From: Spizellomyces punctatus DAOM BR117
Taxonomy: Eukaryota > Chytridiomycota > Chytridiomycetes > Spizellomycetales > Spizellomycetaceae
Assembly (NCBI RefSeq): GCF_000182565.1
Contig: NW_015971564.1
Span: forward strand, 9,779-41,437
Direction of reading: 5' to 3'
DNA: 31,659 nt
The notes under the pieces were generated by a model, which worked only from the letters and a program-made list of their open reading frames with translations, ran no database searches and had not been told where the DNA came from. Positions 6,928-31,659 of this stretch are shown piece after piece (position 1 is the first letter of the stretch; each line of letters begins with the position of its first letter). Position numbers and translations under genes: made by a program.

Positions 6928-7310
6928 TGCTGGGGAAAGTTGAGAAACAGGTGTTATCCTACAACTAGACTGGGTACACCTGAGAGGTGGATAGCCATGT
7001 TAGAAGCTATGCCATTGCTAAAGAACATCTCTGGGGACTGTGTGTCAAAAGAGTAGTGAAAGAGTTGTTATTACAGAAAGAAAAATCGGGGTCCTAAATA
7101 TAGTACAGATCACATGATGATGACCTGATTTTGACCTCTAATTTTGGGCGCATAAAGCAACTAACTAAGAAAGTGTTTTGACACGCTTGTAGTGCGGATT
7201 CAGGGCTTTCTAGAACCGTCTTGGTCTTCTTGATAAGGTAATAACTCGCTAAGTTATTCAAGTTACCGTCCCATGGTAACTTCGATGAAATCAATCAATG
7301 AATTCCAACA
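6928..7310 (-). repeat. Solo LTR of a third LTR family (383 bp) in the copia 3' LTR
   Basis: On the minus strand this 383-bp block begins TGTTGGAATT and ends CCCCAGCA, a TG...CA pair with near-inverted termini. It is flanked by perfect GGCTG duplications (6923-6927 and 7311-7315). It has a TATATTTAGGACC core-promoter-like motif and no credible coding. The structure is that of a solo LTR left by LTR-LTR recombination. The family is not recognised, and its termini resemble copia/Ty1-type LTRs. It contains several CpGs, unlike adjacent gypsy-1. Confidence 0.8.
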
Positions 7311-7347
7311 GGCTGGAGAATGTACTGGGTTATATAAAGGGGACCTT
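7311..7347 (+). repeat. Copia 3' LTR remnant between the solo LTR and gypsy-1
   Basis: GGCTGGAGAATG through the TATATAAA core resumes the copia LTR after the solo LTR. The match stops at 7347, where the gypsy-1 LTR terminus TGTGTTAG starts. The rest of the copia LTR (R-U5) is missing here, displaced by the gypsy-1 insertion. Confidence 0.8.
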
Positions 7348-8013
7348 TGTGTTAGCTAGTGAGGATATATTCCTATAGGGAATGTATTGGTGATAGAGAA
7401 TTGGAACAGAGTGAACTATACTCATGTATAGATGTAAGTCTATTCTGTGTAAGAAGTCACTTGTAACAGGCTAGCAGGGACAAGAAGACAACAGAGAACT
7501 AGGGAAGACTTGGTTACTACTTGTTATTTTCCCTTTGAGGGGCCTCAGAGAGGTCCTCTTTTTATAGACAAAAGGGGCTGACAAATGCTATATCCTAACT
7601 ACCCAATCAGATCTCACCCACATCATCCTAAACTATTTGTCAGCCTATTGCACCATTTGCAACCAATCAGAACTCATACATGTCATCCTAAACTATTTGT
7701 CAGCCTATTGCACCATTTGCAACCAATCAGAACTCATACATGTCATCCTAAACTATTTGTCAGCCTATTGCACCATTTATAGCCAATCACAAGTGAGACA
7801 AGTCATCCTAAATACACTGTGCCACTTGATTAAAAGGGGCAGATGCTAGTGTGTCAGGATACTCATCTAATTTAGCCAGAAATGGCTAAATCTGCTTATT
7901 TATCTAATTCTGGTCAAATGAATGCTGACACCATCAGCAAAGTCATGTGACCACTAGTTTGGAACCACATCTAACCAGTATAACCATAGCACTGACAGAA
8001 GAATTCTGTCACA
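7348..8013 (-). repeat. Gypsy-1 3' LTR (666 bp), left copy
   Basis: Read on the minus strand it runs from TGTGACAG to CTAACACA, matching terminal inverted repeats. It lies directly downstream of the purine tract AAAGTGGGGGAG and the pol stop. It is an inverted copy of 18803-19468. It contains no CpG. It was inserted into a copia LTR; the partner 5' LTR is not in the window. Confidence 0.88.
7600..7809 (-). repeat. 60-bp tandem repeats in the gypsy-1 U3 (about 3.5 units), left copy
   Basis: Units of exactly 60 bp follow each other, two being almost identical and the outer ones diverged. Each holds a CCAAT box on this strand (ATTGG on the minus strand). The ORFs at 7585-7849 are translations of this repeat, not genes. 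See the right copy at 19007-19216. Confidence 0.85.
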
Positions 8014-8029
8014 CTCCCCCACTTTAAGA

Positions 8030-8866
8030 TTAAGCTCCCTTCTGGGCTAGGAACTCCTTCAAGATTTCTCTGCCATGGGGTAGGAGGTATTCTTCTGGTT
8101 CCCAGGTGTTCTGAGAGGAGGGATAGCCTTTCCACTTGATGAGGTAGAGATTCTTCTTCCTTCTGGTCTTGTGGTCCAGAATCTTCTCAACTTCCCAAAA
8201 CTCTTCTCCTTGCTGGATAATTGGCTCAGGCTCAGGGGGTACTGGTCTGGTAGGGAAGTCCTCTGTGGGGTCCAGGTAAGGCTTGAGGAGTCTCACATGG
8301 AACACTGGATGAATCTTCATGGTGCTGGGGAGCTCCAGGGTGTAATTCTGAAATTCATCCTTGGCCTTGATTCTGTAAGGTCCAAGCCAGGGGTGAAGAA
8401 GTTTCTGGGCTGGCCTCTGGGCTTCTTCTTCTGGGGTGATACCTTCTCTAGATAGCCAAACTTTGGAGCCTAGGGGGTAGCTTGGGGCCTTGAGAGACTT
8501 GTTGGCTTGCTGAACTTGTCTTTCTTGGGCCAGTATCATGTTATCCTTGGCTACTTGAAGCAGTTGCTGAATATACTGGTGGAAGTCTGTTGCTTCAAGA
8601 TCATTGCTTTCTCCTGGTGGTGTTGCTGGGGTCCTGGGATGCTGGCCATTCTCCAAGTAGAATGGGGTAAAGCCTGTGGTTTCTGAGATACTGTTGTTGT
8701 AGGCAAACTCAGCAAAGGGGAGAAGATCTTCCCAATTCTTCATGTTGTACTGCAGGAAAGCTCTGAGGTAAATCTTCAAAGTCTTGATGGTTCTCTCTGC
8801 CTGTCCATTGGTCTGCTGGTGCCTTGCAGTGGCTAGGAGGGTGTTGCAGCCTAAGAGTTGCATCAA
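8030..8866 (-). CDS. pol: Gypsy-1 pol C-terminal part: integrase end and chromodomain (left copy)
   Basis: This encodes 278 residues: the integrase catalytic Glu in the NGQAERT motif, the integrase C-terminal GPY/F module (WLGPYRI) and a chromodomain in the last 58 residues with the aromatic and acidic signature (VEKILDH...LIKWKGY...TWEPEEYL). Chromodomains of this type direct integration to marked chromatin. The frame continues upstream to 8882, where the copia solo LTR interrupts it. It is an exact counterpart of 17950-18786. Confidence 0.92.
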   Translation of the reverse strand: MMQLLGCNTLLATARHQQTNGQAERTIKTLKIYLRAFLQYNMKNWEDLLPFAEFAYNNSISETTGFTPFYLENGQHPRTPATPPGESNDLEATDFHQYIQQLLQVAKDNMILAQERQVQQANKSLKAPSYPLGSKVWLSREGITPEEEAQRPAQKLLHPWLGPYRIKAKDEFQNYTLELPSTMKIHPVFHVRLLKPYLDPTEDFPTRPVPPEPEPIIQQGEEFWEVEKILDHKTRRKKNLYLIKWKGYPSSQNTWEPEEYLLPHGREILKEFLAQKGA

Positions 8867-8887
8867 GTTGGACCAGAATGAACTGGT

Positions 8888-9390
8888 TATTGAAACTTAG
8901 CGCTTGGAACACTGATTTCCCGTGTAGAAATCACTTCTCAAAGACCTAGTAATGCCTGTGGCCGCTAGTAAGACTTCTGGGTGCAGTAACTTGTGGGATA
9001 ACACGCTTGTATTAATCCAGAGATGTTCAAAAGTCCCCTTTATATAACCCAGTACATTCTCCAGCCTCCCTCCGCCTTTGTTTGCTGTTTACATGCTTCA
9101 GCCCACTTGTTTACATGCTCAGCCGTGCTCAGCAGCTTCAGCCATGCCTTGGCAAACATTACCTGAAGATCTAGATCATCACAAACCTTCCAGACCTTCT
9201 AAGACTGCTTACATGATGATTTACCCCTTTAAATCATTCACACACGCGTCTGTGATCATTCTGATTACTCTAAGTCCAATTCCCCACGTTGTAACTTAGC
9301 CAGATCAGATGTGAACTGTCTAATGACATCCCAGCATGATCTCACATGATTTATAGATCATACAGCGTGGTTTAAGCCTGAATCTCAACA
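8888..9390 (-). repeat. Copia solo LTR (503 bp) inside the gypsy-1 integrase, left copy
   Basis: A full copia LTR without internal sequence, flanked by CTGGT at 8883-8887 and 9391-9395 (ACCAG on the minus strand). It separates the second integrase Asp from the catalytic Glu. Its presence with the same flanks in the right gypsy-1 copy shows that the gypsy-1 copies were duplicated after this insertion. Confidence 0.93.
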
Positions 9391-10533
9391 CTGGTGAACT
9401 TGGTGTCTCTGTCTGATACAATCACTTCTGGGAGGCCATGGTGCATGAAGATGTGCTTCAAGAAGAGCAGGGCCAGGTCCTTGGCTGAGGCTCTGGTGGT
9501 GGTAGGGATGAAGTGGCCTCTCTTTGACAATCTGTCAACAATGACAAAGATGGCATTGTGACCAGAGGAAGTCATGGGTAGGTCAGGGATCAGGTCAATG
9601 GAGATCTGGCTCCATCTGGTCTTGGGTACTGGGAGGGGCTGCAGCAAGCCTTCTGGTGGTTGCTGACTAGGTTTGCTTCTCTGGCAGGAATCACAAGACT
9701 TGACATACTTCTTAGTGTCCTTGTACATCCTTGGCCAGTAGTAATGCCTTGCTAGGGCATCATGGGTCTTGGTGATGCCAAAGTGTCCAGCATATTGAGT
9801 GTCATGGGTTTCTTGGAGTAGGCTCAACCTTAGGTCTGGGTCACTAGGAACAAAGATCCTGTCCTGGAAATAGAGTAACCCATCCTGATGGCTGAGGTAC
9901 TTGAGCCTTTGTTGCTGGTCTTCTGGTCTCCTGGGGTCATCCAAAGCTTGGATGAGCTCTTGAAGTTCTGGGTCTTCTGTGGTACTGGTCTTCAATCTCT
10001 CTTGAAGGGTGCTGGTGGTGTGGGTCACAGCATTCAACTCTGCTGTCACCAAGGCCTTGCACTTGATGCATCTTGGGGCCAGGTCTGGTCTTCTAGACAG
10101 GATGTCTGCCACTGTGTGGAGTCTTCCTGGGCCATAGCCAATCTCAAAGTCAAAAGATTGGAAATTCATGACCCATCTGGCTTGTCTTCTGGTCAAGAAG
10201 GGCTGGTTCTGTAGCCACTTGAGGGACTGGTGGTCTGAGATAACTTTGAAGGGGGTTCCTTCCAGGTAGGGCCTCCAAACTCTGAGGGCATCATGGATGG
10301 CTAACAGCTCTTGTTCTCTGGTGTCATATCTGGTCTCTGCTGGAGCCATCTTCCTGGAGTGGTAGGCAACTGGTCTGATGCCTTTCCCATCATCCTGTCC
10401 AAGCCATGCTCCAACTGCATAGCCTGAGGCATCAGGGAAGACAGTGGTAGGCAAGGCTGGGTCAAAGGGTCTGAGTACAGGGGCTTTGGTGACCATATCC
10501 TTCAGCTGCTGAAAAGCTTCTCCTGAGGTTCAG
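9372..10533 (-). pseudogene. pol: Gypsy-1 pol fragment: RNase H, zinc finger, integrase core (left copy, truncated)
   Basis: The minus strand is open from 10496 down to a stop inside the solo LTR at 9372, so the last five residues are LTR-encoded. The RNase H, HHCC finger and first two integrase Asp residues are present. Homology to gypsy-1 stops at 10533, where it joins the truncated LTR of copia copy 2. One T is missing near 10517 relative to the other copies, which shifts the frame next to that junction. The RT is absent. Confidence 0.85.
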
Positions 10534-10812
10534 CAGTGCTCAGCAGTGCTCAGCAGCTTCAGCCATGCCTTGGCAAACATTACCTGAAGATCTAGATCGT
10601 CACAAACCTTCCAGACCTTCTAAGAGTGCTTACATGATGATTTTACCCCTTTAAATCATTCCCACACGCATCTGTGATCATTCTGATTACTCTAAGTCCA
10701 TTTCCCCACGTTGTAACTTAGCCAAATCAGATGTGAACTGTCTAATGACATCCCAGCATGATCTCACATGATTTATAGATCATACAGCGTGGTTTAAGCC
10801 TGAATCTCAACA
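10530..10812 (-). repeat. Copia copy 2, 3' LTR, truncated (283 of 503 bp)
   Basis: On the minus strand it begins TGTTGAG at 10812 and is lost after the CTGAGCA repeats. TCAG (10530-10533) is shared by the gypsy-1 sequence and the LTR at the breakpoint, a 4-bp microhomology. TATA, R and U5 are missing, so this copy has no complete 3' LTR. Confidence 0.88.
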
Positions 10813-14800: not shown

Positions 14801-14979
14801 GTCTGAGCTGATTTGGTGAGTGGATGTGCTGTTGGAGAAGAGGTGAAATCGTCCTGGTGTGGTAGGTGGTCCAAATATGAGGTTGGGAAGAAGATAGGTC
14901 CGTCAGGAAGATGGTGTGGCCGTCAGAAAAGAGATTTGAAGCAGGAAAATATCAGTGATAGCTATCAGGGCTCATAACC
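14801..14979 (-). other. Copia copy 2 leader and primer-binding site
   Basis: This is the 179-bp stretch between the 5' LTR and gag, an inverted counterpart of 2405-2583. It retains the GGTTATGAGCCCTG primer-binding site directly after the LTR (14966-14979). No coding is seen. Confidence 0.7.
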
Positions 14980-15482
14980 TATTGAAACTTAGCGCTTGGA
15001 ACACTGATTTCCCGTGTGGAAATCACTTCTGGAAGACCTAGTAATGCCTGTGGCCGCTAGTAAGACTTCTGGGTGCAGTAACTTGTGGGATAACACGGTT
15101 GTATTAATTCAGAGACGTGCAAAAGTCCCCTTTATATAACCCAGTACATTCTCCAGCCTCCCTCCGCCTTTGTTTACTGTTTACATGCTTCAGCCATGCT
15201 CAGCAGTGCTCAGCAGTGCTCAGCAGCTTCAGCCATGCCTTGGCAAACATTACCTGAAGATCTAGATCGTCACAAACCTTCCAGACCTTCTAAGAGTGCT
15301 TACATGATGATTTTACCCCTTTAAATCATTCCCACACGCATCTGTGATCATTCTGATTACTCTAAGTCCATTTCCCCACGTTGTAACTTAGCCAAATCAG
15401 ATGTGAACTGTCTAATGACATCCCAGCATGATCTCACATGATTTATAGATCATACAGCGTGGTTTAAGCCTGAATCTCAACA
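14980..15482 (-). repeat. Copia copy 2, 5' LTR (503 bp)
   Basis: A complete LTR, nearly identical to 1902-2404. One visible difference is GTGACGATC here against GTGATGATC there. The outer flank is AACAG (15483-15487), the complement of the CTGTT before copy 1, followed by the same gypsy-2 LTR piece. Copies 1 and 2 therefore descend from one insertion by segmental duplication. Confidence 0.9.
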
Positions 15483-15708
15483 AACAGGAACCTAACAGAG
15501 CGCTTCAATGGCCTGATCACCCGTACCGAAGCCTCTAAATCCTGCTCGGTTCACAACTAACTGACTCTCCTTGCCTCTCGCCCTCAAGTCGCTACCGATG
15601 CCCAAAGAAAGGATTTGGAGACTACGATTCCTAGTACGGACACCCACATAACCTGCTAGGAGACCCAAGTCGTCTTTACCATAGTCTACCAACAAAAAAT
15701 CCGTTACA
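15483..15708 (+). repeat. Gypsy-2 LTR distal fragment (inverted copy of 1676-1901)
   Basis: A plus-strand block ending CCGTTACA directly before gypsy-1 RT coding. It carries the LTR terminus but not the rest of gypsy-2, which shows that it was copied together with copia copy 2 and gypsy-1 as one segment. Confidence 0.78.
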
Positions 15709-17444
15709 TGATGGATAGGCTGAATGGAGCCCAGGTGTTTACCAAGCTAGATCTGAAGTCAGGCTATTACCAGATCAGAGTCCACCCAGAAGACATCCCC
15801 AAGACAGCCTTCAGAACCAGATATGGTCACCTTGAGTTCCTGGTCATGTCCTTTGGAATGACCAATGCCCGAGCCACTTTCATGACTTTGATGAATGATG
15901 TCCTTAGACCCTTCTTGGACATCTTTGTTATTGTCTACCTAGATGACATCCTCATCTACTCCAAGACCCCAGAAGATCACCTGGACCACCTCAAGCAGGT
16001 TCTGCAAGCCCTCAGGCAGAACAAGCTGTATGCCAACCCCAGCAAGTGCCAGTTCTTCAAGCAAGAAGTAGAGTTTCTTGGCCATGTAGTCTCACATGAA
16101 GGAGTCAAGCTTGATCCCAAGAAAGTGCAGACTGTTCAAGAATGGCCCACCCCTCAGAGTGTCACTGAAGTCAGACAGTTCATGGGCCTGGTGAACTACT
16201 TCCATAGCTTTCTGAAGGACCTGGCAGAGCAAGCTGCACCATTGACAGACCTGTTGAGAAATGACAAGCCCTGGACCTGGTCTGAACCTCAGGAGAAAGC
16301 TTTTCAGCAGCTGAAGGATATGGTCACCAAAGCCCCTGTACTCAGACCCTTTGACCCAGCCTTGCCTACCACTGTCTTCCCTGATGCCTCAGGCTATGCA
16401 GTTGGAGCATGGCTTGGACAGGATGATGGGAAAGGCATCAGACCAGTTGCCTACCACTCCAGGAAGATGGCTCCAGCAGAGACCAGATATGACACCAGAG
16501 AACAAGAGCTGTTAGCCATCCATGATGCCCTCAGAGTTTGGAGGCCCTACCTGGAAGGAACCCCCTTCAAAGTTATCTCAGACCACCAGTCCCTCAAGTG
16601 GCTACAGAACCAGCCCTTCTTGACCAGAAGACAAGCCAGATGGGTCATGAATTTCCAATCTTTTGACTTTGAGATTGGCTATGGCCCAGGAAGACTCCAC
16701 ACAGTGGCAGACATCCTGTCTAGAAGACCAGACCTGGCCCCAAGATGCATCAAGTGCAAGGCCTTGGTGACAGCAGAGTTGAATGCTGTGACCCACACCA
16801 CCAGCACCCTTCAAGAGAGATTGAAGACCAGTACCACAGAAGACCCAGAACTTCAAGAGCTCATCCAAGCTTTGGATGACCCCAGGAGACCAGAAGACCA
16901 GCAACAAAGGCTCAAGTACCTCAGCCATCAGGATGGGTTACTCTATTTCCAGGACAGGATCTTTGTTCCTAGTGACCCAGACCTAAGGTTGAGCCTACTC
17001 CAAGAAACCCATGACACTCAATATGCTGGACACTTTGGCATCACCAAGACCCATGATGCCCTAGCAAGGCATTACTACTGGCCAAGGATGTACAAGGACA
17101 CTAAGAAGTATGTCAAGTCTTGTGATTCCTGCCAGAGAAGCAAACCTAGTCAGCAACCACCAGAAGGCTTGCTGCAGCCCCTCCCAGTACCCAAGACCAG
17201 ATGGAGCCAGATCTCCATTGACCTGATCCCTGACCTACCCATGACTTCCTCTGGTCACAATGCCATCTTTGTCATTGTTGACAGATTGTCAAAGAGAGGC
17301 CACTTCATCCCTACCACCACCAGAGCCTCAGCCAAGGACCTGGCCCTGCTCTTCTTGAAGCACATCTTCATGCACCATGGCCTCCCAGAAGTGATTGTAT
17401 CAGACAGAGACACCAAGTTCACCAGTGTTGAGATTCAGGCTTAA
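15708..17444 (+). CDS. pol: Gypsy-1 pol: RT (5'-truncated), RNase H, HHCC finger, integrase core
   Basis: Real gypsy-1 coding spans 15709-17425. The last five residues and the stop come from the inserted copia LTR, and the apparent ATG uses the final A of the gypsy-2 LTR. The open frame holds RT palm motifs (LDLKSGYYQI, YLDD at residues 77-80), RNase H (D226, E267, D292), an HHCC zinc finger ending CDSCQRS, and integrase Asp505 and Asp566. The catalytic Glu is in the next piece (17950-18786), in the same frame once the LTR and one duplication are discounted. RT fingers, protease and gag are missing because gypsy-2 had inserted. Only one CpG occurs (15870-15871); every other Arg codon is AGA or AGG. 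Confidence 0.94.
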   Translation: MMDRLNGAQVFTKLDLKSGYYQIRVHPEDIPKTAFRTRYGHLEFLVMSFGMTNARATFMTLMNDVLRPFLDIFVIVYLDDILIYSKTPEDHLDHLKQVLQALRQNKLYANPSKCQFFKQEVEFLGHVVSHEGVKLDPKKVQTVQEWPTPQSVTEVRQFMGLVNYFHSFLKDLAEQAAPLTDLLRNDKPWTWSEPQEKAFQQLKDMVTKAPVLRPFDPALPTTVFPDASGYAVGAWLGQDDGKGIRPVAYHSRKMAPAETRYDTREQELLAIHDALRVWRPYLEGTPFKVISDHQSLKWLQNQPFLTRRQARWVMNFQSFDFEIGYGPGRLHTVADILSRRPDLAPRCIKCKALVTAELNAVTHTTSTLQERLKTSTTEDPELQELIQALDDPRRPEDQQQRLKYLSHQDGLLYFQDRIFVPSDPDLRLSLLQETHDTQYAGHFGITKTHDALARHYYWPRMYKDTKKYVKSCDSCQRSKPSQQPPEGLLQPLPVPKTRWSQISIDLIPDLPMTSSGHNAIFVIVDRLSKRGHFIPTTTRASAKDLALLFLKHIFMHHGLPEVIVSDRDTKFTSVEIQA

Positions 17445-17928
17445 ACCACGCTGTATGATCTATAAATCATGTGAGATCATGCTGGGATGTCATTAGACAG
17501 TTCACATCTGATCTGGCTAAGTTACAACGTGGGGAATTGGACTTAGAGTAATCAGAATGATCACAGACGCGTGTGTGAATGATTTAAAGGGGTAAATCAT
17601 CATGTAAGCAGTCTTAGAAGGTCTGGAAGGTTTGTGATGATCTAGATCTTCAGGTAATGTTTGCCAAGGCATGGCTGAAGCTGCTGAGCACGGCTGAGCA
17701 TGTAAACAAGTGGGCTGAAGCATGTAAACAGCAAACAAAGGCGGAGGGAGGCTGGAGAATGTACTGGGTTATATAAAGGGGACTTTTGAACATCTCTGGA
17801 TTAATACAAGCGTGTTATCCCACAAGTTACTGCACCCAGAAGTCTTACTAGCGGCCACAGGCATTACTAGGTCTTTGAGAAGTGATTTCTACACGGGAAA
17901 TCAGTGTTCCAAGCGCTAAGTTTCAATA
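17426..17928 (+). repeat. Copia solo LTR (503 bp) inside the gypsy-1 integrase, right copy
   Basis: A complete LTR from TGTTGAG to TCAATA flanked by ACCAG at 17421-17425 and 17929-17933. These perfect duplications define the exact LTR ends for the family. It carries several CpGs, in contrast to the surrounding gypsy-1. Confidence 0.95.
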
Positions 17929-17949
17929 ACCAGTTCATTCTGGTCCAAC

Positions 17950-18786
17950 TTGATGCAACTCTTAGGCTGCAACACCCTCCTAGCCACTGCAAGGCACCAG
18001 CAGACCAATGGACAGGCAGAGAGAACCATCAAGACTTTGAAGATTTACCTCAGAGCTTTCCTGCAGTACAACATGAAGAATTGGGAAGATCTTCTCCCCT
18101 TTGCTGAGTTTGCCTACAACAACAGTATCTCAGAAACCACAGGCTTTACCCCATTCTACTTGGAGAATGGCCAGCATCCCAGGACCCCAGCAACACCACC
18201 AGGAGAAAGCAATGATCTTGAAGCAACAGACTTCCACCAGTATATTCAGCAACTGCTTCAAGTAGCCAAGGATAACATGATACTGGCCCAAGAAAGACAA
18301 GTTCAGCAAGCCAACAAGTCTCTCAAGGCCCCAAGCTACCCCCTAGGCTCCAAAGTTTGGCTATCTAGAGAAGGTATCACCCCAGAAGAAGAAGCCCAGA
18401 GGCCAGCCCAGAAACTTCTTCACCCCTGGCTTGGACCTTACAGAATCAAGGCCAAGGATGAATTTCAGAATTACACCCTGGAGCTCCCCAGCACCATGAA
18501 GATTCATCCAGTGTTCCATGTGAGACTCCTCAAGCCTTACCTGGACCCCACAGAGGACTTCCCTACCAGACCAGTACCCCCTGAGCCTGAGCCAATTATC
18601 CAGCAAGGAGAAGAGTTTTGGGAAGTTGAGAAGATTCTGGACCACAAGACCAGAAGGAAGAAGAATCTCTACCTCATCAAGTGGAAAGGCTATCCCTCCT
18701 CTCAGAACACCTGGGAACCAGAAGAATACCTCCTACCCCATGGCAGAGAAATCTTGAAGGAGTTCCTAGCCCAGAAGGGAGCTTAA
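17950..18786 (+). CDS. pol: Gypsy-1 pol C-terminal part: integrase end, GPY/F module, chromodomain
   Basis: Coding resumes at 17934, right after the solo LTR and its duplication. Residues 15-30 of the listed frame carry the H-Q-Q-T-N-G-Q-A-E motif with the catalytic Glu at about 18019-18021. A GPY/F module (WLGPYRI) follows, then a proline-rich linker and a chromodomain over about residues 221-278 (VEKILDH, LIKWKGY, TWEPEEYL). The TAA at 18784 is 17 bp before the LTR. No CpG occurs in the whole 837 bp. The chromodomain marks the element as a chromovirus and predicts targeting to modified histone H3. Confidence 0.94.
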   Translation: MMQLLGCNTLLATARHQQTNGQAERTIKTLKIYLRAFLQYNMKNWEDLLPFAEFAYNNSISETTGFTPFYLENGQHPRTPATPPGESNDLEATDFHQYIQQLLQVAKDNMILAQERQVQQANKSLKAPSYPLGSKVWLSREGITPEEEAQRPAQKLLHPWLGPYRIKAKDEFQNYTLELPSTMKIHPVFHVRLLKPYLDPTEDFPTRPVPPEPEPIIQQGEEFWEVEKILDHKTRRKKNLYLIKWKGYPSSQNTWEPEEYLLPHGREILKEFLAQKGA

Positions 18787-18790
18787 TCTT

Positions 18791-18802
18791 AAAGTGGGGG
18801 AG
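18791..18802 (+). other. Gypsy-1 polypurine tract
   Basis: AAAGTGGGGGAG lies directly before the LTR terminus TGTGACAG, the expected plus-strand primer position. Confidence 0.8.
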
Positions 18803-19006
18803 TGTGACAGAATTCTTCTGTCAGTGCTATGGTTATACTGGTTAGATGTGGTTCCAAACTAGTGGTCACATGACTTTGCTGATGGTGTCAGCATTCATTT
18901 GACCAGAATTAGATAAATAAGCAGATTTAGCCATTTCTGGCTAAATTAGATGAGTATCCTGACACACTAGCATCTGCCCCTTTTAATCAAGTGGCACAGT
19001 GTATTT

Positions 19007-19216
19007 AGGATGACTTGTCTCACTTGTGATTGGCTATAAATGGTGCAATAGGCTGACAAATAGTTTAGGATGACATGTATGAGTTCTGATTGGTTGCAAA
19101 TGGTGCAATAGGCTGACAAATAGTTTAGGATGACATGTATGAGTTCTGATTGGTTGCAAATGGTGCAATAGGCTGACAAATAGTTTAGGATGATGTGGGT
19201 GAGATCTGATTGGGTA
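19007..19216 (+). repeat. 60-bp tandem repeats in the gypsy-1 U3 (about 3.5 units)
   Basis: The units start at 19007, 19067, 19127 and 19187 (partial). Each includes TGATTGG, an inverted CCAAT box, and all but the partial last unit have the shared core TGGTGCAATAGGCTGACA. The array ends about 35 bp before the TATA box. Arrays of this kind in U3 commonly act as enhancers; that role here is inferred from position and motif. Confidence 0.85.
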
Positions 19217-19249
19217 GTTAGGATATAGCATTTGTCAGCCCCTTTTGTC

Positions 19250-19257
19250 TATAAAAA
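19250..19257 (+). promoter_or_regulatory. TATA box of the gypsy-1 LTR
   Basis: TATAAAAA followed by GAGGACC lies downstream of the tandem repeats. The gypsy-2 LTR has a closely similar TATAAAAAGAGG, which suggests the same type of core promoter in both families. Confidence 0.6.
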
Positions 19258-19468
19258 GAGGACCTCTCTGAGGCCCCTCAAAGGGAAAATAACAAGTAGT
19301 AACCAAGTCTTCCCTAGTTCTCTGTTGTCTTCTTGTCCCTGCTAGCCTGTTACAAGTGACTTCTTACACAGAATAGACTTACATCTATACATGAGTATAG
19401 TTCACTCTGTTCCAATTCTCTATCACCAATACATTCCCTATAGGAATATATCCTCACTAGCTAACACA

Positions 19469-19505
19469 AAGGTCCCCTTTATATAACCCAGTACATTCTC
19501 CAGCC
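19469..19505 (-). repeat. Copia LTR remnant (right arm counterpart of 7311-7347)
   Basis: This is the inverted counterpart of the short copia LTR piece, containing the complement of TATATAAA. It ends in CAGCC (19501-19505), one copy of the duplication flanking the 383-bp solo LTR. Confidence 0.78.
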
Positions 19506-19888
19506 TGTTGGAATTCATTGATTGATTTCATCGAAGTTACCATGGGACGGTAACTTGAATAACTTAGCGAGTTATTACCTTATCAAGAAGACCAAGACGG
19601 TTCTAGAAAGCCCTGAATCCGCACTACAAGCGTGTCAAAACACTTTCTTAGTTAGTTGCTTTATGCGCCCAAAATTAGAGGTCAAAATCAGGTCATCATC
19701 ATGTGATCTGTACTATATTTAGGACCCCGATTTTTCTTTCTGTAATAACAACTCTTTCACTACTCTTTTGACACACAGTCCCCAGAGATGTTCTTTAGCA
19801 ATGGCATAGCTTCTAACATGGCTATCCACCTCTCAGGTGTACCCAGTCTAGTTGTAGGATAACACCTGTTTCTCAACTTTCCCCAGCA
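19506..19888 (+). repeat. Solo LTR of a third LTR family (383 bp), right copy
   Basis: TGTTGGAATT to CCCCAGCA with CAGCC duplications at 19501-19505 and 19889-19893. In this orientation TATATTTAGGACC forms a plausible core promoter. The plus-strand ORF at 19522-19722 is not supported as a gene. Confidence 0.8.
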
Positions 19889-20246
19889 CAGCCTCCCTCT
19901 GCCTTTATTTACTGTTTACATGCTTCAGCCCACTTGTTTACATGCTCAGCCATGCTCAGCAATGCTCAGCAGCTTCAGCCATGCCTTGGCAAACATTACC
20001 TGAAGATCTAGATCATCACAAACCTTGCAGACCTTCTAAGAGTGCTTACATGATGATTCACCCCTTTAAATTATTCCCACAAATGTCTGTCATACCCACA
20101 CATGTCTGTGATCATTCTGATTACTCTAAGTCCAATTCCCCATGTTGTAACCTAGCCAGATCAGATGTGAACTGTCTAATGACATCCCAGCATGATCTCA
20201 CATGATTTATAGATCATACAGCATGGTTTAAGCCTGAATCTCAACA
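19889..20246 (-). repeat. Copia 3' LTR, proximal part (right arm)
   Basis: This is the inverted counterpart of 6570-6927 with the same diagnostic substitutions. It starts on the minus strand at 20246 with TGTTGAG and overlaps the copia stop codon. Confidence 0.85.
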
Positions 20247-24466: not shown

Positions 24467-24548
24467 AACCTAAGATTGGAGTTGAGAAGCGAGTTATGGG
24501 GATTTTGTGTCGCTACGGCTTCTGCCCGCCAACTTATTTTATTGAATT

Positions 24549-24560
24549 CCTCTTTTTATA
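24549..24560 (-). promoter_or_regulatory. TATA box of the gypsy-2 LTR
   Basis: TATAAAAAGAGG on the minus strand, about 250 bp into the LTR, followed within 25 bp by AATAAA. This order suggests U3/R with the poly(A) signal in R. Confidence 0.55.
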
Positions 24561-24812
24561 CAAGAATATGCTACGGTAACGTCTACACTAGTTTCCGTAG
24601 CCTTCATTAGGGTGGCGGCGTCCGATCTTCCCATCTCAGACCATCGCCATGATCGATCATGGCTGCGTAACATATCCTTCATGCTGCGCTGGTGTAGCCC
24701 AGAACCGAGCTTGATCTTAGGGGTTTCGAAGCTTAGGTTACAATTGTGGAAACCTCAATCGTGGTCACCTGATTCCTTTGAGCGAACCGGTTTATCAGAG
24801 TCATTCGCTACA

Positions 24813-24822
24813 TCCCCCCTTT
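24813..24822 (-). other. Gypsy-2 polypurine tract
   Basis: AAAGGGGGGA on the minus strand immediately precedes the LTR terminus TGTAGCG. It anchors the 3' LTR start, about 50 bp after the stop of the accessory ORF. Confidence 0.75.
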
Positions 24823-24869
24823 GAAAAAGAAGGTTCGGCGACTCGTCTGTGAGTGCCCGAACCTCGCTT

Positions 24870-25655
24870 CTACCATGACACAACTGGATAGTCGTCGTCA
24901 GCTTCAAGGCTGTCTTCGTTGATCATCCAGATTATGGTAGCGCGCCCCATGACGTTCGCGCAGAACCAAATTTGGTCAGTGGCTTCCGGAGCCGGGGTTC
25001 CAGGTGTCCTGGAACCATTGGCTCGGGTTACATAGAGGGCTGTGAATGTCTCTGCGGCCCTTTTCAAGTTAACTGCTTGAAAGTGGTAATAGGCGTGCTC
25101 CCGATGTTTGGGACGGAGCTGCTCTTCTGTGGTTTCAGCTGCATTGGCTAGCTTTAACAACACTGCTCTCGCGGCTTCGATGGCTATGTCCGCGAAATCG
25201 TGGGCCTTGTGATCGGGCCAGAGGGTGAAGTGGGCCGTTTTGGGGTTTCCGGCCGCATGTTGAGGGACCCCAGCGTCAAGCCAGGCAGCGCAGGGTACGT
25301 CCCGTAATCTCTTCCTGATCTTTTTTGCATCGGTGACGATACCGACAGCTGCTTGACCGCCGTCGGAAGCCCTACTGTAGGGCTCCGCGATATGCATCGT
25401 GAGGGGCTGGCTCGTGGCGTACGGCTTCGAAGCCCCGTCAACCACCCAATCTTCACCACGATAGTGTTCAAGGGGTTTGTTTGGGTCTTCGAACAGCTCA
25501 CGAATCCAAACTTCGACCCAGGTGGCCATAGCTGCTCCGAGCCGCTCGATAGAGTTCTCGGCAGCGAAGGCGTCGCTTACTTCTGACCAGGGATAGCCTT
25601 CCTCAAGGGTAGAGAGGATGCTGACTCCTTGTTGTCCTTGGATATCAGTGGTCAT
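24870..25655 (-). CDS. Accessory ORF of gypsy-2, unknown function (261 aa)
   Basis: An ATG in good context (A at -3) opens 261 codons ending in TAG at 24870, 48 bp before the purine tract. I do not recognise a family. It looks soluble, with no signal peptide, membrane segment or cysteine-rich motif. It is rich in Ala, Glu, Asp and Trp, has helical stretches (about residues 30-55 and 155-180) and an acidic C-terminus ending in DDDYPVVSW. It is not env-like. The frame also stays open upstream to the chromodomain (continuous to about 26171), so it could instead be a C-terminal extension of pol. A separate start is favoured by promoter-like sequence just upstream. It lacks the stops that scar the pol region, which may mean constraint or chance. 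Confidence 0.6.
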   Translation of the reverse strand: MTTDIQGQQGVSILSTLEEGYPWSEVSDAFAAENSIERLGAAMATWVEVWIRELFEDPNKPLEHYRGEDWVVDGASKPYATSQPLTMHIAEPYSRASDGGQAAVGIVTDAKKIRKRLRDVPCAAWLDAGVPQHAAGNPKTAHFTLWPDHKAHDFADIAIEAARAVLLKLANAAETTEEQLRPKHREHAYYHFQAVNLKRAAETFTALYVTRANGSRTPGTPAPEATDQIWFCANVMGRATIIWMINEDSLEADDDYPVVSW

Positions 25656-25930
25656 GGTGTTGGAAACGAAAGCTTTTGTCTCGGTGTTGATAGACAAGGT
25701 TTGCGAAGCAGAGTAGGTCTGTAAGGGAGATAGGTTGTAGGTAGTTGAAGAAGAAAAAAGAGGGGGAGCATGCAGGGGCATCCTTTTAAGGTCGTCGCTG
25801 GCTGATTTTGACAGCTCGGACGCGCATAAGCATGATCGGGAGGCTTGGTGTGGCGTTCTCGACTGGTGAGGTAAGCCACGCGAAACTGGTTTTCTTTCTG
25901 GTGAGAGGGCGTGATTATCACGTGAGCTAT
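25656..25930 (-). promoter_or_regulatory. Candidate internal promoter and 5' UTR for the gypsy-2 accessory ORF
   Basis: Upstream of the ATG on the minus strand lie a CACGTG palindrome (25919-25924), a TTAAAAGG TATA-like motif (25782-25789) and a pyrimidine tract (about 25745-25772), then a C/A-rich leader to the ATG. This resembles fungal RNA polymerase II promoters. It also lies in an open frame, so the reading is not unique. Confidence 0.35.
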
Positions 25931-26009
25931 CATCCGGATAAACCGCGAAGCATTGGTGGTCGGAAGCATAAGCCGTATCTTCCGGGGCGTCGCCTGCAAG
26001 GCTGACTAC

Positions 26010-26171
26010 CAAAGAGTCCTCTACTAGCGCGCTAGTGGGAGCTCTGGATCTCCAGTACTCTTCTAAGGCTTCGGAAGCCTCTGTTAGGGCTTCCTCTGGT
26101 TCCCAGGTATCCTCATGGGGTGGGTATCCGGACCAATGTATTTGAAATTGACGTTTTCCGCGCCTGGTTCG
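26010..26171 (-). pseudogene. pol: Gypsy-2 chromodomain, C-terminal half (frame-separated from pol)
   Basis: The minus strand encodes QFQIHWSGYPPHEDTWEPEE and a following acidic helix, a clear chromodomain second half. It is out of frame with the preceding part because ATGG is duplicated in tandem at 26172-26179 (plus strand). Removing four bases would restore continuity, so the lesion looks recent. The frame runs on without a stop into the accessory ORF. Confidence 0.75.
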
Positions 26172-26883
26172 ATGGATGGTCTACTATCACTTCCACTTCA
26201 AACTTGCCATCTGAAGCGTTGGAATCCTCCGCTTGTGCTTCTGTGACCTTTTCCTCAGTTTCAGCATCGACAGGCTTCTGGTACGGACGTAATTTCAATA
26301 TGTGAAACCATGGATGAAGTCGTCTCATCTTGTCTGGCAGTTTTAACTCGTAGTTGTCGTGGAGAGGGTTACAGTCGGTCACCATGACTGGTCCCAGCCA
26401 TTTCGGAGTGATCTTGGACTCATACCCTGCTAGGTTTTTCATGCTCAGAAGCACCTTATCTCCTCTCCGGAACTCCAAATGTCGTCGCGATAAATCATAA
26501 TATCTTTTCTGCGAATCCTGGGCTTCAATCATCAGATCTCGGATAAGGATGTTTAGGTTGCCAAGGTGTTTACAGAGCTCTTCCACATCTGCATTTCTGG
26601 TTTCTGACGGCCTTTCGACGATGTCCGCCAGTGGATTGTGGGGCTCATAGCCTAGGTCCATTCTGAATCGCATCATTTTTGTCGCCTCGTGTACCGTATC
26701 ATTGATAATGAATTCCGCAACCGGAAGAAAGGTGTCCCAGTCATCTAATCGGGTGTTGACCATTGTGGTAAGGACCTGCAAGACCGTTGCATTGTCTCTT
26801 TCTGATTGTCCATCACCTTGAGGGTGGTAGGCTGTGGTGAGCTCTTGATTAATCTTTAGGTTTTTGCAGACCTCCTGCCAAAA
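26113..26883 (-). pseudogene. pol: Gypsy-2 integrase C-terminal part
   Basis: This follows in frame after the TGA at 26884. It holds the catalytic Glu motif (YHPQGDGQSERDN, near 26800-26840), an alpha-helical linker, the GPY/F-type module (WLGPVMV) and the first strand of a chromodomain (FEVEVIVDH) before the frameshift, ending at a stop at 26113. Confidence 0.85.
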
Positions 26884-28410
26884 TCAACTCGTAAATTTGG
26901 AGTTGCGGTCTGAGATAATGGTCTCCGGGATGCCGTGCAATGGGACGTAGCACTCTATAAAGAGTTCCGTGACCTGAATAGCTGTCGCAGTGCTCTTGAG
27001 GGGCCATACGTGGATCCTCTTTGAGCATTTACATGCTATTAACCAAAAGGTGTCATACCCTCTGGAAGTAAGTGGGAGCTTGGTTACGAAGTCAGTCGTG
27101 ATGACTGTCCAGCATCCCGGAGCTGGTGGTATGGGTTTCAGCAACCCCGGAATCAGTTGCGGTACCCTTTTTGAGCGTTGGCAGGTTTCACATCCTGCAC
27201 AATGTTTTCTGAAATCTTGTGCCATTTTCGGCCACCAGACTTGTGCTGCAGCTCTAGCGTAGGTTCTTTCGAATCCGAAGTGTCCTCCCCCCTCGTGAAA
27301 AAGCTTGCGCACCTCGGGGGTGCAAGCAGGGGGCACGTAGAGGCGCCAAAGGTCTTCGGAGACTGAAAAACGGTGCCACAGCAGGTTATCTGCACGTTGC
27401 CAGTCCTGAAGAAAGCACGCGTCGGCTGTAGTGTAGGTGTCGGGGCTGGTCTCCCATAGGAGCATGCGGGCCTGTTGGGCTATGGGGTGGAGCTGGCCGG
27501 TGAGGCCAGCGTGGATGGCGGCAATGAGTGCAGGCTGTAAGGCCAGACGAAAGACGGCATCTGCCAGTGTCGAGGAAGGTGCGAGAGCAGCTGGTGTGGT
27601 GCGCAGCCGTCGTCTTCCGCATTTCGACACCCATATTTGGGTCGCGGTGGAGCAGAGTAGGGTTTCCGCTCCTAGTAGCCGTGAAAGTGTATCAGCGACA
27701 ATGTGAAAACATCCTGGTTTGTGAACAATTGTCATCCATTCGGACCAGTAACTAAGATCGAGGGCCCAGCAGAGAAGCTTACGGTTCTCGCCTTTGTATT
27801 TAGCAAGCCACAAAAGAGCTCGGTGATCAGTAATGACCGTGAAAGGCAGGCCTTCGAGGTATGGGCGGAGTTTTCCGAGGCCCCAAATGAGGCATCCGGC
27901 CTCAAGTTTGACGGGGGGGGCCTTCTTTTCTGAGGTGGTGGTGCCTCGGGAATGGTAGCACAGCAGGCGTTTAGAAGCATCCGGCTGTAACTGTTCGAGT
28001 GTGACATTAAATGCTGTGTAGGAAGCGTCACTGTGAAGGGTGTAGGGGAACCCTTTTCTGGGTGCCGCGAGCACTGGAGCTGTTGTCAGAGCCTGCTTGG
28101 CGGCTGCGAAGGCAGAGTTTTGGGAATCGGTCCATGAAACTTCACGCTTCGCGATAAATCTGTGCAGACCTTGGTCAGGGCGCTTGCGAGCAAGGCGTCT
28201 GACACAAAAGGGGTCAATGGGTAAGTCCGCCAGCGATGATTGGTGTAGATTGACCGCCGGTAGGTCTGAGGAGCTAGATTTCGGATGTTGCAAAACCTCA
28301 AATCGGGCTCCGGTGGCTGTGATTGTAGGGGCCACCGCCGTGTCGAGCATGGATGGTGAATTGAGCTTTTCAGCGCCTTTCTTCGGGTCAGCGCGACCCT
28401 TTTTAAGGTC
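26884..28410 (-). pseudogene. pol: Gypsy-2 RNase H and integrase core
   Basis: A frame open over 508 codons between TGA at 28411 and TGA at 26884. It contains the RT thumb, RNase H (TLHSDAS, VITDHRALLWL), an HHCC finger ending CETCQRSK, and integrase with Asp in TTDF and Asp in ISDRNSKF. The terminal TGA falls where chromoviruses normally have Arg before Phe-Trp, consistent with CGA to TGA. It is in frame with both neighbouring pol pieces. Confidence 0.88.
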
Positions 28411-28413
28411 TCA

Positions 28414-29136
28414 GTATTTGCAAACGCCCTCTTGGATAGCGTCTTGCAGGGGTCGGACGAGTTCCACATAGCGAGAAATGAATTGGGTGTAGAACCCTAG
28501 GAGACCCATGAATGACCATAGGTCACCTATGAATTTGGGTCATGGCCAATTGACTATGGTTGTGACCTTGTCTGGATCAGTAGCGAGACCCTGAGAGGAG
28601 GCAACGAAACCGAGGGCCGTGAGCTGGTGAAAGAGCCATTGACACTTGTCGAGTCTTAGGGTGAGTTTGGCTCTGGAAAAGTGGTTGAGCCAGTCTGCAA
28701 TGGCGTCTAGGGCTTCCACGGCTGTCTCCGCTCATGTGTGGATATTGTCGACGAAGTTGTTGATATTTCGCCATTTGGAGGGACCCAAGGTGTCGTCCAT
28801 CACCCGACAGAAGTGCGAGGGGGCAGTCTTGGGTCCGAAGGGCATAAAGAGTGGTTCGTAGATGCCGTCATGGAGTCTGAGCGTGAGCCATTTGCGTACC
28901 GATGCATCGGTGATGGCGATTTGGTAGAATCCTTTGTTTGCATCACCTCCCGATATGTATCGGAATGGGACTGCGACGATCCAGTTCAGGATGTCGAGCA
29001 TGATGGGAAAGGGATATGGATCCCAGGCCATGCAGTCGTTGGCTCGGCGATAGTCGAAGGCTATGCGCGGGGGTTTGTCTGCATAGCGAATGATAACAGG
29101 ATCGCTGGCGAAGGTTACTTCGGTGGTTCGTTCCAC
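28414..29136 (-). pseudogene. pol: Gypsy-2 reverse transcriptase palm, with stops and a mutated active site
   Basis: RT motifs are recognisable (FDYRRAND, GGDANKGFYQI, MPFGPKTAPSHFCRVMDD). The usual (F/Y)VDD box reads FVDN, with Asn at 28744-28746, so the second catalytic Asp is lost. In-frame TGA codons occur at 28732-28734 and 28540-28542, and another closes the region at 28411-28413. The D-to-N change and the stops fit CpG transitions. The enzyme would be inactive. Confidence 0.88.
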
Positions 29137-29885
29137 CTCTGAAGCCCCATCATGGTGTCTCGCTCCGTCTCGAGGGCTGTCCGCTCCAACGGAGAGTATG
29201 ACCGTGGCCTCGAAAGGGGTGGCAGAGCCGAGATAAATCGAGGCGCATAAGGAATCTTGGTGTAGTTCCCTATGAGATGACCCTCATAGCTGAAGGCTTG
29301 ATGGAAGTGTCGTAGAATGTTGATTAGGGCCCAGACCATGGGTTTGGGTCGCTTGAGATCGACGTGGAAACGTTCCGCGTCTTTTAATTGGGCTTCGAAG
29401 GCCCCTGGAGCCCTCTCCATAGAGTCGAGGTTCCATTTGTTCAAAAGTGTCTGCCATTCTTCTTTGGAAATGTTCTCTTCGGGGTCCGCAACCGAATTAT
29501 GGGTCACGGTGGACAGTTTGAGGCCTAACGGGACCGTTGAGCTAGCAGCGGTGGCCTCAAGAGGGTTTTCGATGAGAAAAGTTTGGGCTGCCACGCGCGT
29601 CTGTCCCGTGATTAACATGGTTAATCTAGACTTCTGAGCTTTGGCTTTGGTCAGCCGTGGCATTGACACATCCTTCATGAATTCACCCTGCTTGGTCTTG
29701 TATGGCGTGCCGCGCATGTGATCAGTGTCCAGCTCATCTGTTATGGAGCAAGAGATAAGGATGTCCGGATTCTTGAGTGTCACCGCGAAACTGGGTAACG
29801 GGGGTTCCTGAACCAAGGTTTGGAGTTTCAAATGTCCCAGAACGTCATTGGCTAGGATGATGAGAGGTTTCCCGTATGCAATGAC
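29115..29885 (-). pseudogene. pol: Gypsy-2 linker between protease and RT, with RT N-terminal region
   Basis: In the same frame as gag-protease after the TGA at 29886-29888. The first part is a poorly conserved linker. The end (LRHFHQAFSYEGH... LERTALETERDTM) resembles the RT fingers entry of Ty3 elements. A frameshift near 29130 separates it from the RT palm. Confidence 0.7.
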
Positions 29886-31659
29886 TCAGAAATAGGCACG
29901 GAAAGTCAGGTATTCTCCTCCGTGGCCTCTGAGGGAAGTTTCGAGGCATACTGTCTTGGTAGATGAGATACGTCCACCAATGCCTTTGAAAGCCATCGTT
30001 TCCGCATCCTGCAAATCAGTTTCGGAGAACAGAAGGCCCTGGTACATGTCGGAAACCAGAGACTTGCAGGCTCCTGTGTCTAGTACCACAGGTGCCCAGA
30101 GCTGAGCGATGACGGCTAGCGTCCAGCAAGGCTGCGTTTGGGTCTTGGTCTGGCTTTTGAGTACATCGCCTAAATCTACTGAGTAGAAGGCGTTGATGGA
30201 AGGCACCGTGACCTCGAAATGGGGCGCGATGTCATTACTTGTTGCTTCCGTAGCCTTGATCGCACTCTCAAAGTGCTCTCTAGATTTGTCGTTTTGTGGT
30301 TTTGTTGTTTTATTCTGGCGAGCAACTTGTTCAATAGCCAGCATGACTATACGCGTCCGTTCGCTCTCTTCATGTCTTTGGAGACGTGGATGGTCTTTAA
30401 CGTGCAGAAATTTGGGGTTTCCACGACGATAATAATAGTCTGAGCAAACGATATTGCCTGTCAGGAGAAATGCCACCAGTTGCAGGTTGGCATAAGAATC
30501 AAAGATAACAGGATCTTCGGAGCTCCACATCAAGAATTTCTCATGCTCATCGAGCCTTATCCAGGCAAGGAGGATCAAACGAGGGGTACCGTCTTCTCGG
30601 ACTTTTCGCAGGATTCGATCCTTGTCAGCTTCGGCTGTGGCAGTGATGTAGAGGTGGTGGGAACTCCACGCAACTGCGTAGGGGTCGTTCCCGAGGTGCC
30701 CGGCGCCTCGCTTCGGTTCTTTGGCGAAGAAGCTGAGCGCGCGGGGGTTGTTGCCCATCATCAGAGCCACTTGCGGGGTGCCCCAGATGATGGCTATGTT
30801 GTCCCAGACTTGGTCCCAGCCCTGCGTGGGCGTGCGGGGGTCCTCTTCCTTGGTCACCGTGACCTTGGAAAGAGGTGCGGTCATCAAAATTGTTGATTCC
30901 GAGCGCTCAGGTGAATGAAAGAATCCGATGGTGTGGAATCCTTGATTAGTGGCGGCTGTCCTTTCCAGTTCCGAAGCCGAAAAAAGAGTCTCGGTGGTAG
31001 CGGACGTCGAGTCCAGCTCCACTATGTACGACTTCTTGGACTCCTGTTTGGAACCTGCGGGCATGGGTGCTCCATATGGTCCCTTCTTTCCATCTTCAGG
31101 ATCTTTTCGGTTCGGGTTCTGCCAGCAGAAAACATTCCAATGCTTTTTCTGACAGAATTTGCAGGGTGCCGGTGGTTCCATGTTGGGGTCCGGAACCATC
31201 TTCTGAGGGCCGTCGCGACTCTTTTTGGGGTTTCCGGTTTTATGTTGAGCCGTCTGCTTAGGGCCTTTGTCGGTTCCAGTCTTTTGTGACTTCTTCTGAG
31301 CTTCAGCAGCACCGCTGTAGCAAGGGTCTCGTTTTCTGGTGTCATCAGAGCCGAAATAAAGGCGCAGGAAGTCTTTTAATTTGGTCAGGTTCGTGACATT
31401 ACAGGATTTGACCATGATTTGGATGTCACTGGGCAATTGTTCGACTATTAGGTCGAAATGCTGGTCAGCGGGACATTCTATGTTTGCCCGGTCGCCGTAT
31501 GCGAGGCGCTGGAGATGAGTTTTGTGGTCAATGAACGCGAGAAAGCTGCAAAATTCTTTGGGGTTCACGTGGCAGTGCACATATTCGGTTTTGCGCTTGG
31601 ACTCGGTTAGGGGATCTCGGAACTCTTGAAGCAGTTCTTCTTTCCACCTTTTCCAGGTC
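29886..31659 (-). CDS. gag: Gypsy-2 gag with zinc knuckle and aspartic protease (5' partial)
   Basis: The minus-strand frame is open from the right edge to TGA at 29886. The start (WKRWKEELLQEFRDP, 31610-31660 side) resembles a Ty3 gag capsid region. A short CCHC-like knuckle CKFCQKKHWNVFC follows a basic, Lys-rich stretch. The protease motif VVLDTGAC has its Asp near 30078-30080, with a flap-like GIGG 40 residues later. Between knuckle and protease lies a long low-similarity region of about 300 residues. The terminal TGA may replace CGA, since the frame continues into the linker. The true start is outside the window. Confidence 0.8.
   Translation of the reverse strand, partial: TWKRWKEELLQEFRDPLTESKRKTEYVHCHVNPKEFCSFLAFIDHKTHLQRLAYGDRANIECPADQHFDLIVEQLPSDIQIMVKSCNVTNLTKLKDFLRLYFGSDDTRKRDPCYSGAAEAQKKSQKTGTDKGPKQTAQHKTGNPKKSRDGPQKMVPDPNMEPPAPCKFCQKKHWNVFCWQNPNRKDPEDGKKGPYGAPMPAGSKQESKKSYIVELDSTSATTETLFSASELERTAATNQGFHTIGFFHSPERSESTILMTAPLSKVTVTKEEDPRTPTQGWDQVWDNIAIIWGTPQVALMMGNNPRALSFFAKEPKRGAGHLGNDPYAVAWSSHHLYITATAEADKDRILRKVREDGTPRLILLAWIRLDEHEKFLMWSSEDPVIFDSYANLQLVAFLLTGNIVCSDYYYRRGNPKFLHVKDHPRLQRHEESERTRIVMLAIEQVARQNKTTKPQNDKSREHFESAIKATEATSNDIAPHFEVTVPSINAFYSVDLGDVLKSQTKTQTQPCWTLAVIAQLWAPVVLDTGACKSLVSDMYQGLLFSETDLQDAETMAFKGIGGRISSTKTVCLETSLRGHGGEYLTFRAYF

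What the first reader, a model, noticed from the sequence alone, without database searches (positions are those of the whole stretch)
15709..19468. A chromovirus almost free of CpG but with open pol frames
Reading 15709-17425 and 17934-19468 base by base (3252 bp, solo LTR excluded) I find a single CpG, at 15870-15871. At this base composition well over a hundred would be expected. All Arg codons except one are AGA/AGG, no NCG codon is used, and the LTR has none. The copia ORF keeps roughly 60 CpGs in 4 kb, the copia solo LTR inside gypsy-1 keeps several, and gypsy-2 is CpG-rich. If CpGs had been lost after insertion, CGA to TGA stops would be expected, yet the frames are open. The depletion therefore probably predates insertion, and the family may have been shaped by CpG methylation or have adapted to avoid it (inference).
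Basis: partly seen in the sequence, partly recalled or inferred. Interest (0 to 1): 0.82.

Follow-up and report, generated by a model that had tools for sequence, protein, structure and literature searches.

The report
CpG-free chytrid retrotransposon with open frames
A jumping gene in a chytrid fungus has lost practically every CG letter pair in all its examined copies, in a genome whose other jumping genes are being mutated at CG pairs; it seems to have been worn down to a form that this mutation can no longer damage.

Summary
In detail: 1 CpG where 185 are expected. The whole family is like this: 19 non-duplicate copies of the main pol stretch hold 16 CpGs against 1,810 expected, each private to one locus, so the loss predates the copies. 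The genome is not CpG-poor: six host gene loci have o/e 0.75-1.02, copia copies 0.11-0.26, gypsy-2 copies 0.81-1.05. The host is a chytrid encoding DNMT5 and an SRA protein. Its other retrotransposons suffer CpG-specific C-to-T mutation: among three related gypsy-2 copies CpG sites change 55-175 times faster than other sites, though only about 4 times in a less mutated pair; a third gypsy family has 41 in-frame stops, all TGA. gypsy-1's CpG count implies, at mutational equilibrium, a CpG excess rate of about 150-165, near the upper measured values. Best reading: CpG hypermutation, probably 5mC-directed, drove a replicating, protein-constrained lineage to a CpG-null state that offers no further target. 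Whether lack of CpG is also selected, as escape from silencing, is open. No methylation was measured here.

The parts
15708..17425 (+). gypsy-1 pol, first stretch: reverse transcriptase (5'-truncated), RNase H, integrase zinc finger and start of the integrase core; 1 CpG
   Evidence: Pfam; CpG; truncation
17426..17933 (+). solo copia LTR inserted in the integrase region; 10 CpGs; not part of gypsy-1
   Evidence: repeat families D2-D5; CpG
17934..18786 (+). gypsy-1 pol, second stretch: end of the integrase with SH3-like and C-terminal chromodomain; 0 CpG
   Evidence: Pfam PF00385, PF24626
18787..19468 (+). gypsy-1 3' end with LTR, including a 60-base tandem repeat; 0 CpG against 26.7 expected
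   Evidence: the exact LTR borders were not determined
7348..10534 (-). second gypsy-1 piece, inverted duplicate of part of the first, with the same solo LTR (about 8883-9390)
   Evidence: inverted repeat I2; L010
1..1676 (-). third gypsy-1 piece, inverted duplicate of 15708-17383
   Evidence: inverted repeat I1; L011
2584..6588 (+). comparison: copia gag-pol ORF with 59 CpGs (o/e 0.24)
24501..31580 (-). comparison: gypsy-2, CpG o/e 0.85, a copy that has lost about 30% of the CpGs of its family
   Evidence: row L069

Best explanation
gypsy-1 is a Ty3/gypsy chromovirus lineage that has lived under strong CpG-specific C-to-T mutation of retrotransposons long enough to reach mutational equilibrium near zero CpG, while selection for function kept its protein. 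SHOWN: CpG is practically absent in all copies examined and was absent in their common ancestor over the stretches compared; Arg is read from AGA/AGG; other retrotransposons of this genome lose CpGs by C-to-T in a CpG-specific, copy-dependent way, and one family carries only TGA stops; the host gene loci examined are spared. INFERRED: the mutation is deamination of 5-methylcytosine kept on transposons by DNMT5 with an SRA (UHRF1-like) protein; lineages with CGN Arg codons were lost and those with AGR codons survived; the CpG-null element offers this process no target, which helps its frames to stay open.
For: 16 CpGs against 1,810 (19 polA copies) and 7 against 800 (17 polB copies); 16 of 16 polA and 5 of 6 polB CpG positions private to one locus. 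CpG-specific C-to-T in other families: gypsy-2 56.2 against 2.3 events per 1000 site-copies, copia 23.9 against 2.0; related gypsy-2 copies differ at 67 CpG against 2 other sites, 95 against 5, 105 against 10. Stops: 41 of 41 TGA in gypsy-3, 11 TGA and 3 TAA in gypsy-2. Host gene loci o/e 0.75-1.02, and Arg from CGN in 68 of 78 codons of the DNMT5 exon. DNMT5 and SRA present. The equilibrium count (TpG+CpA)/(2k) gives k 165 and 149 against measured 55-175 in three mutated gypsy-2 copies.
Against: No methylation was measured. The measured CpG excess is uneven: 4 (2-8) in one gypsy-2 pair, 43 for the window's own copy, per-copy values 3-280; with the low values equilibrium would leave far more CpGs than seen. 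The pairs are not independent and only 8 of 25 gypsy-2 places were fetched, those most like the window's copy. The equilibrium sum assumes equal background rates both ways and that new CpGs in gypsy-1 are hit. gypsy-1 itself has 6 TGA stops (with 5 TAG and 1 TAA) in 6 of 28 rows, which I did not study. [quoted passage not shown]
Confidence: 0.68

Rival explanations
1. Adaptive CpG avoidance: copies that carry CpG are methylated and silenced, so only CpG-free copies are transcribed and multiply; selection among copies, not mutation alone, keeps CpG at zero.
For: At synonymous third positions CpG-making transitions are seen at 7 of 138 sites against 54 of 211 others (p 2e-7); the deficit looks stronger in variants shared by 2-9 copies (2 of 138 against 30 of 211, odds ratio 0.09) than in singletons (5 of 138 against 24 of 211, 0.29). 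The LTR-bearing 3' end is CpG-free too.
Against: The singleton deficit already appears without any round of transposition, and the two odds ratios were not shown to differ. copia, which keeps CpGs, shows a weaker deficit of the same kind (15 of 218 against 37 of 281, p 0.03; singletons 6 against 13, p 0.35). Fast loss of new CpGs predicts the same pattern.
Confidence: 0.22
2. RIP-like hypermutation: repeats are recognised and their CpGs mutated in bursts (for example around sex), independently of standing methylation.
For: CpG loss is copy-dependent and not clock-like: 98 CpG against 12 other changes in one comparison, 10 against 12 in another; only repeats seem affected.
Against: No RID- or DIM-2-like gene among the two DNA-methylase places found (searched exon by exon), no CpA target, and mutated copies keep 70-85% of their CpGs. 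A methylated against an unmethylated state of single copies explains the unevenness as well.
Confidence: 0.2
3. The element arrived by horizontal transfer from an organism in which it had already lost its CpGs.
For: None of the 120 relatives listed exceeds 53% identity, so the source is unknown.
Against: A process that removes CpG from retrotransposons is at work in this genome; no donor is in sight.
Confidence: 0.08
4. Assembly or sampling artefact of the duplicated window.
For: The window is a nest of identical inverted repeats on a 41-kb contig.
Against: The same depletion is in copies on 15 other contigs.
Confidence: 0.01

Closest known systems
CpG-type C-to-T mutation of transposons in fungi (Microbotryum, weaker in Puccinia and Melampsora; Tuber) as described in PMC4352252 (passages read)
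   Same: C-to-T in transposon copies with a CpG signature, no RID gene needed, explained there by deamination after methylation
   Different: There the signature marks decayed copies and is tied to a Masc2-like gene; here DNMT5 is the candidate, the host is a chytrid, no TCG preference is seen (ACG slightly highest), and one family is CpG-free with frames largely open
RIP with CG preference (Uncinocarpus reesii, as quoted in PMC4165359, passages read)
   Same: repeats lose CpG
   Different: no RID-like gene found here; mutated copies lose CpGs partially
DNMT5/UHRF1 maintenance methylation of Cryptococcus neoformans (PMC13297926, passages read)
   Same: DNMT5 homologue with methylase and SNF2 parts and one SRA domain in this genome
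   Different: chytrid host; methylation not measured here
Fungal Ty3/gypsy chromoviruses (PMC3248453, passages read)
   Same: RT, RNase H, integrase, C-terminal chromodomain
   Different: practically no CpG in any examined copy; at most 53% identity to the listed relatives

Membership tests
Ty3/gypsy chromovirus | integrase downstream of reverse transcriptase and RNase H | tested here: met
   RVT_1 3-127, RNase H 191-319, H2C2 423-481, rve 502-577 of the first stretch; rve scores below its cut-off because the solo LTR cuts it
Ty3/gypsy chromovirus | C-terminal chromodomain | tested here: met
   PF00385, E 2.9e-18
Ty3/gypsy chromovirus | two flanking LTRs | not tested
   window copy is 5'-truncated; only 3' ends were compared
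RIP | C-to-T mutation of repeats, genes spared | tested here: met
   few host loci examined
RIP | RID/Masc1-type methyltransferase gene | tested here: not met
   only a DNMT5 and a short Dnmt2-like place (name recalled) match PF00145; exon-wise search, so not final
RIP | action in the sexual cycle | not testable with these tools
   -
DNMT5 CpG methylation of transposons | DNMT5 gene with methylase and SNF2 parts | tested here: met
   PF00145 and PF00176 in neighbouring frames of L035; 929 bits to 7r76, listed as Rad8 and recalled as Cryptococcus DNMT5
DNMT5 CpG methylation of transposons | 5mC on transposon CpGs | not testable with these tools
   published for Spizellomyces (PMC12695648, passages); that the host is that genus is not shown

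The most novel reading that the evidence does not exclude
gypsy-1 is a methylation-stealth retrotransposon: without CpG in its coding sequence or LTR it cannot be marked by a CpG-only DNMT5 system, so it escapes both silencing and hypermutation and outlives CpG-bearing rivals, in a chytrid that mutates transposons at CpG although it seems to lack RID, DIM-2 and DNMT1.
Probability: 0.25. Interest if true: 0.8.

Novelty: new variant of a known kind. Interest (0 to 1): 0.62.

Why it matters
One genome shows what look like the stages of CpG decay: a family with full CpG and open frames (gypsy-2), one half-way (copia), one riddled with TGA stops (gypsy-3), and one that has come out at the far end with no CpG and frames largely open (gypsy-1). 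It points to strong CpG-directed mutation of transposons in a chytrid with DNMT5 as the only candidate found, outside the groups of the papers I saw, and gives a testable case of a transposon made immune to a genome defence by using up its target.

Tried and rejected
Host by rRNA: the Rfam search of the genome failed twice. The host was placed through DNMT5: nearest named relatives are the chytrids Phlyctochytrium arcticum (63%) and Rhizophlyctis rosea (55%), which NCBI puts in Chytridiales and Rhizophlyctidales, so the order is not settled. Retrotransposon proteins did not place the host: listed relatives are unnamed metagenome, algal, fungal and oomycete proteins. TCG preference: not found. 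Clock-like decay: not borne out. Separating selection from hypermutation by singletons against shared variants: not decisive. Counts without regard to codon position were replaced by synonymous third positions.

Dropped rows: L010 and L011 as duplicates of L009; L030 from polA variant counts (too short); copia 28 of 30 copies and 29 of 30; hits under 250 bases. Not fetched: 11 of 41 copia places, 17 of 25 gypsy-2 places. The host o/e of L037 was inflated by masked N and is corrected (0.97).

Papers: none of the listings of the ten searches showed, in title or abstract start, a CpG-null fungal retrotransposon family; most listings were capped at 20. Passages only were seen of PMC12695648, PMC4352252, PMC13297926, PMC5872316, PMC3248453, PMC4165359; PMC3318451, closely relevant, is not held.
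Full report
OBSERVATION. In 15709-17425 there is one CpG (15870) against 107.7 expected, in 17934-19468 none against 77.5. Of 50 Arg codons 49 are AGA/AGG; NCG codons are 0 of 199; C at the third position before G is 0 of 228, although C3 before another base is 298 of 620. The depletion is specific: GpC is 0.83 and TpG/CpA 1.36 of expectation.

WHAT IT IS. A Ty3/gypsy chromovirus: reverse transcriptase, RNase H, integrase and a C-terminal chromodomain, 5'-truncated at 15709 and interrupted by a solo copia LTR at 17426-17933. The window is a nest of inverted repeats; its gypsy-1 pieces at about 1-1676 and 7348-10534 are duplicates of the same DNA.

FAMILY. A DNA search of the 24.0-Mb genome finds 24 places. 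In the 22 loci L009-L030, which lie on the window's contig and 15 others, the polA alignments hold 0-5 CpGs; alignments of the full 1717 bases expect 106-109. The 3' end has no CpG in 10 of the 11 loci where at least 250 bases of it align, and one in L027. Leaving out the window duplicates, polA has 16 CpGs against 1,810 (19 copies) and polB 7 against 800 (17 copies). All 16 polA positions are private to one locus, counting the window duplicate with its source, and 5 of 6 polB positions are. Most copies are 96-99% identical to the window's, the lowest 91.5% over polA. The common ancestor therefore lacked CpG over these stretches.

BACKGROUND. Six host gene loci have CpG o/e 0.75-1.02, a small sample; the DNMT5 exon reads Arg from CGN in 68 of 78 codons, the opposite of gypsy-1. 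Copia copies: 0.11-0.26 (30 of 41 places fetched); gypsy-2: 0.81-1.05 (8 of 25). Three of the gypsy-2 copies (L071, L073, L074), from places where one search lists open frames of 2528 residues, keep 95-97% of their family's CpGs; four others keep 70-75%, one 85%.

A PROCESS THAT HITS CpG IN TRANSPOSONS. Transition events at CpG cytosines are 56.2 per 1000 site-copies against 2.3 at other cytosines in gypsy-2, and 23.9 against 2.0 in copia. Three related gypsy-2 copies differ by 67 CpG against 2 other changes, 95 against 5, and 105 against 10, that is 175, 99 and 55 times per site; for the window's own copy the figure is 43, and for a pair of little-mutated copies 4 (2-8). So the strength is copy-dependent. 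Products are TpG and CpA in similar numbers; ACG is hit somewhat more (0.113 against 0.064-0.073). In-frame stops, sorted by me into families by place and identity: gypsy-3 (32-48% identical to gypsy-1) 41 TGA and nothing else, in 10 of 11 rows; gypsy-2 11 TGA, 3 TAA, 0 TAG in 64 rows; gypsy-1 6 TGA, 5 TAG, 1 TAA in 6 of 28 rows. Some rows are duplicates of each other. The six gypsy-1 TGAs, in two rows, were not studied.

HOST AND MACHINERY. The genome encodes a DNMT5 homologue: methylase and SNF2 parts, 929 bits to the chain of 7r76, listed as Rad8 and recalled as Cryptococcus DNMT5. Its nearest named relatives are chytrid proteins (63% and 55%; taxonomy); full-length DNMT5s above 1937 residues could not be listed there. 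The only other DNA-methylase place is short and Dnmt2-like (name recalled). One SRA domain is present. For Spizellomyces a paper states that 5mC is confined to transposons (PMC12695648, passages).

HOW IT WORKS. If each TpG/CpA turns into CpG at a background rate and each CpG is lost through either of its two cytosines at k times that rate, the equilibrium count is (TpG+CpA)/(2k). gypsy-1's counts give k of 165 (polA) and 149 (polB), at the upper end of the measured 4-175. If the strong values hold for methylated, multiplying lineages, no selection against CpG as such is needed, only long residence and selection for the protein, which removes CGN Arg lineages and keeps AGR ones. The outcome is an element that this process can hardly hurt. 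If the low values hold, something more is needed, and selection is the natural candidate.

IS CpG ALSO AVOIDED BY SELECTION? At synonymous third positions CpG-making transitions are seen at 7 of 138 sites, others at 54 of 211 (p 2e-7); copia 15 of 218 against 37 of 281 (p 0.03). For singletons the gypsy-1 odds ratio is 0.29 (p 0.01; copia 0.58, p 0.35), for variants shared by 2-9 copies 0.09 (p 2e-5; copia 0.37, p 0.04). Fast loss of new CpGs and failure of CpG-bearing copies to multiply both predict this; the data do not separate them.

AGAINST KNOWN THINGS. CpG-type C-to-T mutation of fungal transposons is described for basidiomycetes and truffle (PMC4352252, passages), and CG-type RIP is quoted for Uncinocarpus (PMC4165359, passages). 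Two statements run against the methylation reading: that 5mC does not substantially shape base composition across eukaryotes at large (PMC12695648, passages), and that chytrids belong to the fungi in which 6mA has largely replaced 5mC (PMC13297926, passages). What is unusual is the end state, a whole family with practically no CpG and frames largely open, and the setting, a chytrid with DNMT5 as the only candidate enzyme found. I rate it a new variant of a known kind.

Noticed in passing
window 1-4631 with 12753-17383; 6266-10519 with 16297-20550: Large inverted repeats, printed as 100% complementary, that include nested insertions: recent inverted duplication, gene conversion or an assembly effect at a 41-kb contig.
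   Followed up: partly
window 19004-19213 and 7603-7812: The gypsy-1 LTR region holds a 60-base tandem repeat, with ATTGG/CCAAT motifs (motif meaning recalled), in both duplicates.
   Followed up: no
window 2584-6588: The best named relatives of the copia polyprotein are mostly from oomycetes (Globisporangium, Pythium, Peronospora, Phytophthora; about 41-50%), besides an unnamed metagenome protein at 61% and an Aspergillus oryzae entry lower down; possibly old horizontal transfer.
   Followed up: no
L077 (C14:25500-26700) and places on C14, C22, C23: A further gypsy family (gypsy-3, 32-48% identical) with 41 in-frame stops, all TGA; CpG o/e of one piece about 0.58 (34 against 59).
   Followed up: partly
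window 15483-15707: 225 bases between the copia LTR and the truncated gypsy-1, with normal CpG (11 against 12.5), of unknown origin; 114 bases of it match one end of L005.
   Followed up: no
L005/L024 (C25): The gypsy-1 copy with most CpGs in polA (5); whether it is older or unmethylated is unknown.
   Followed up: no
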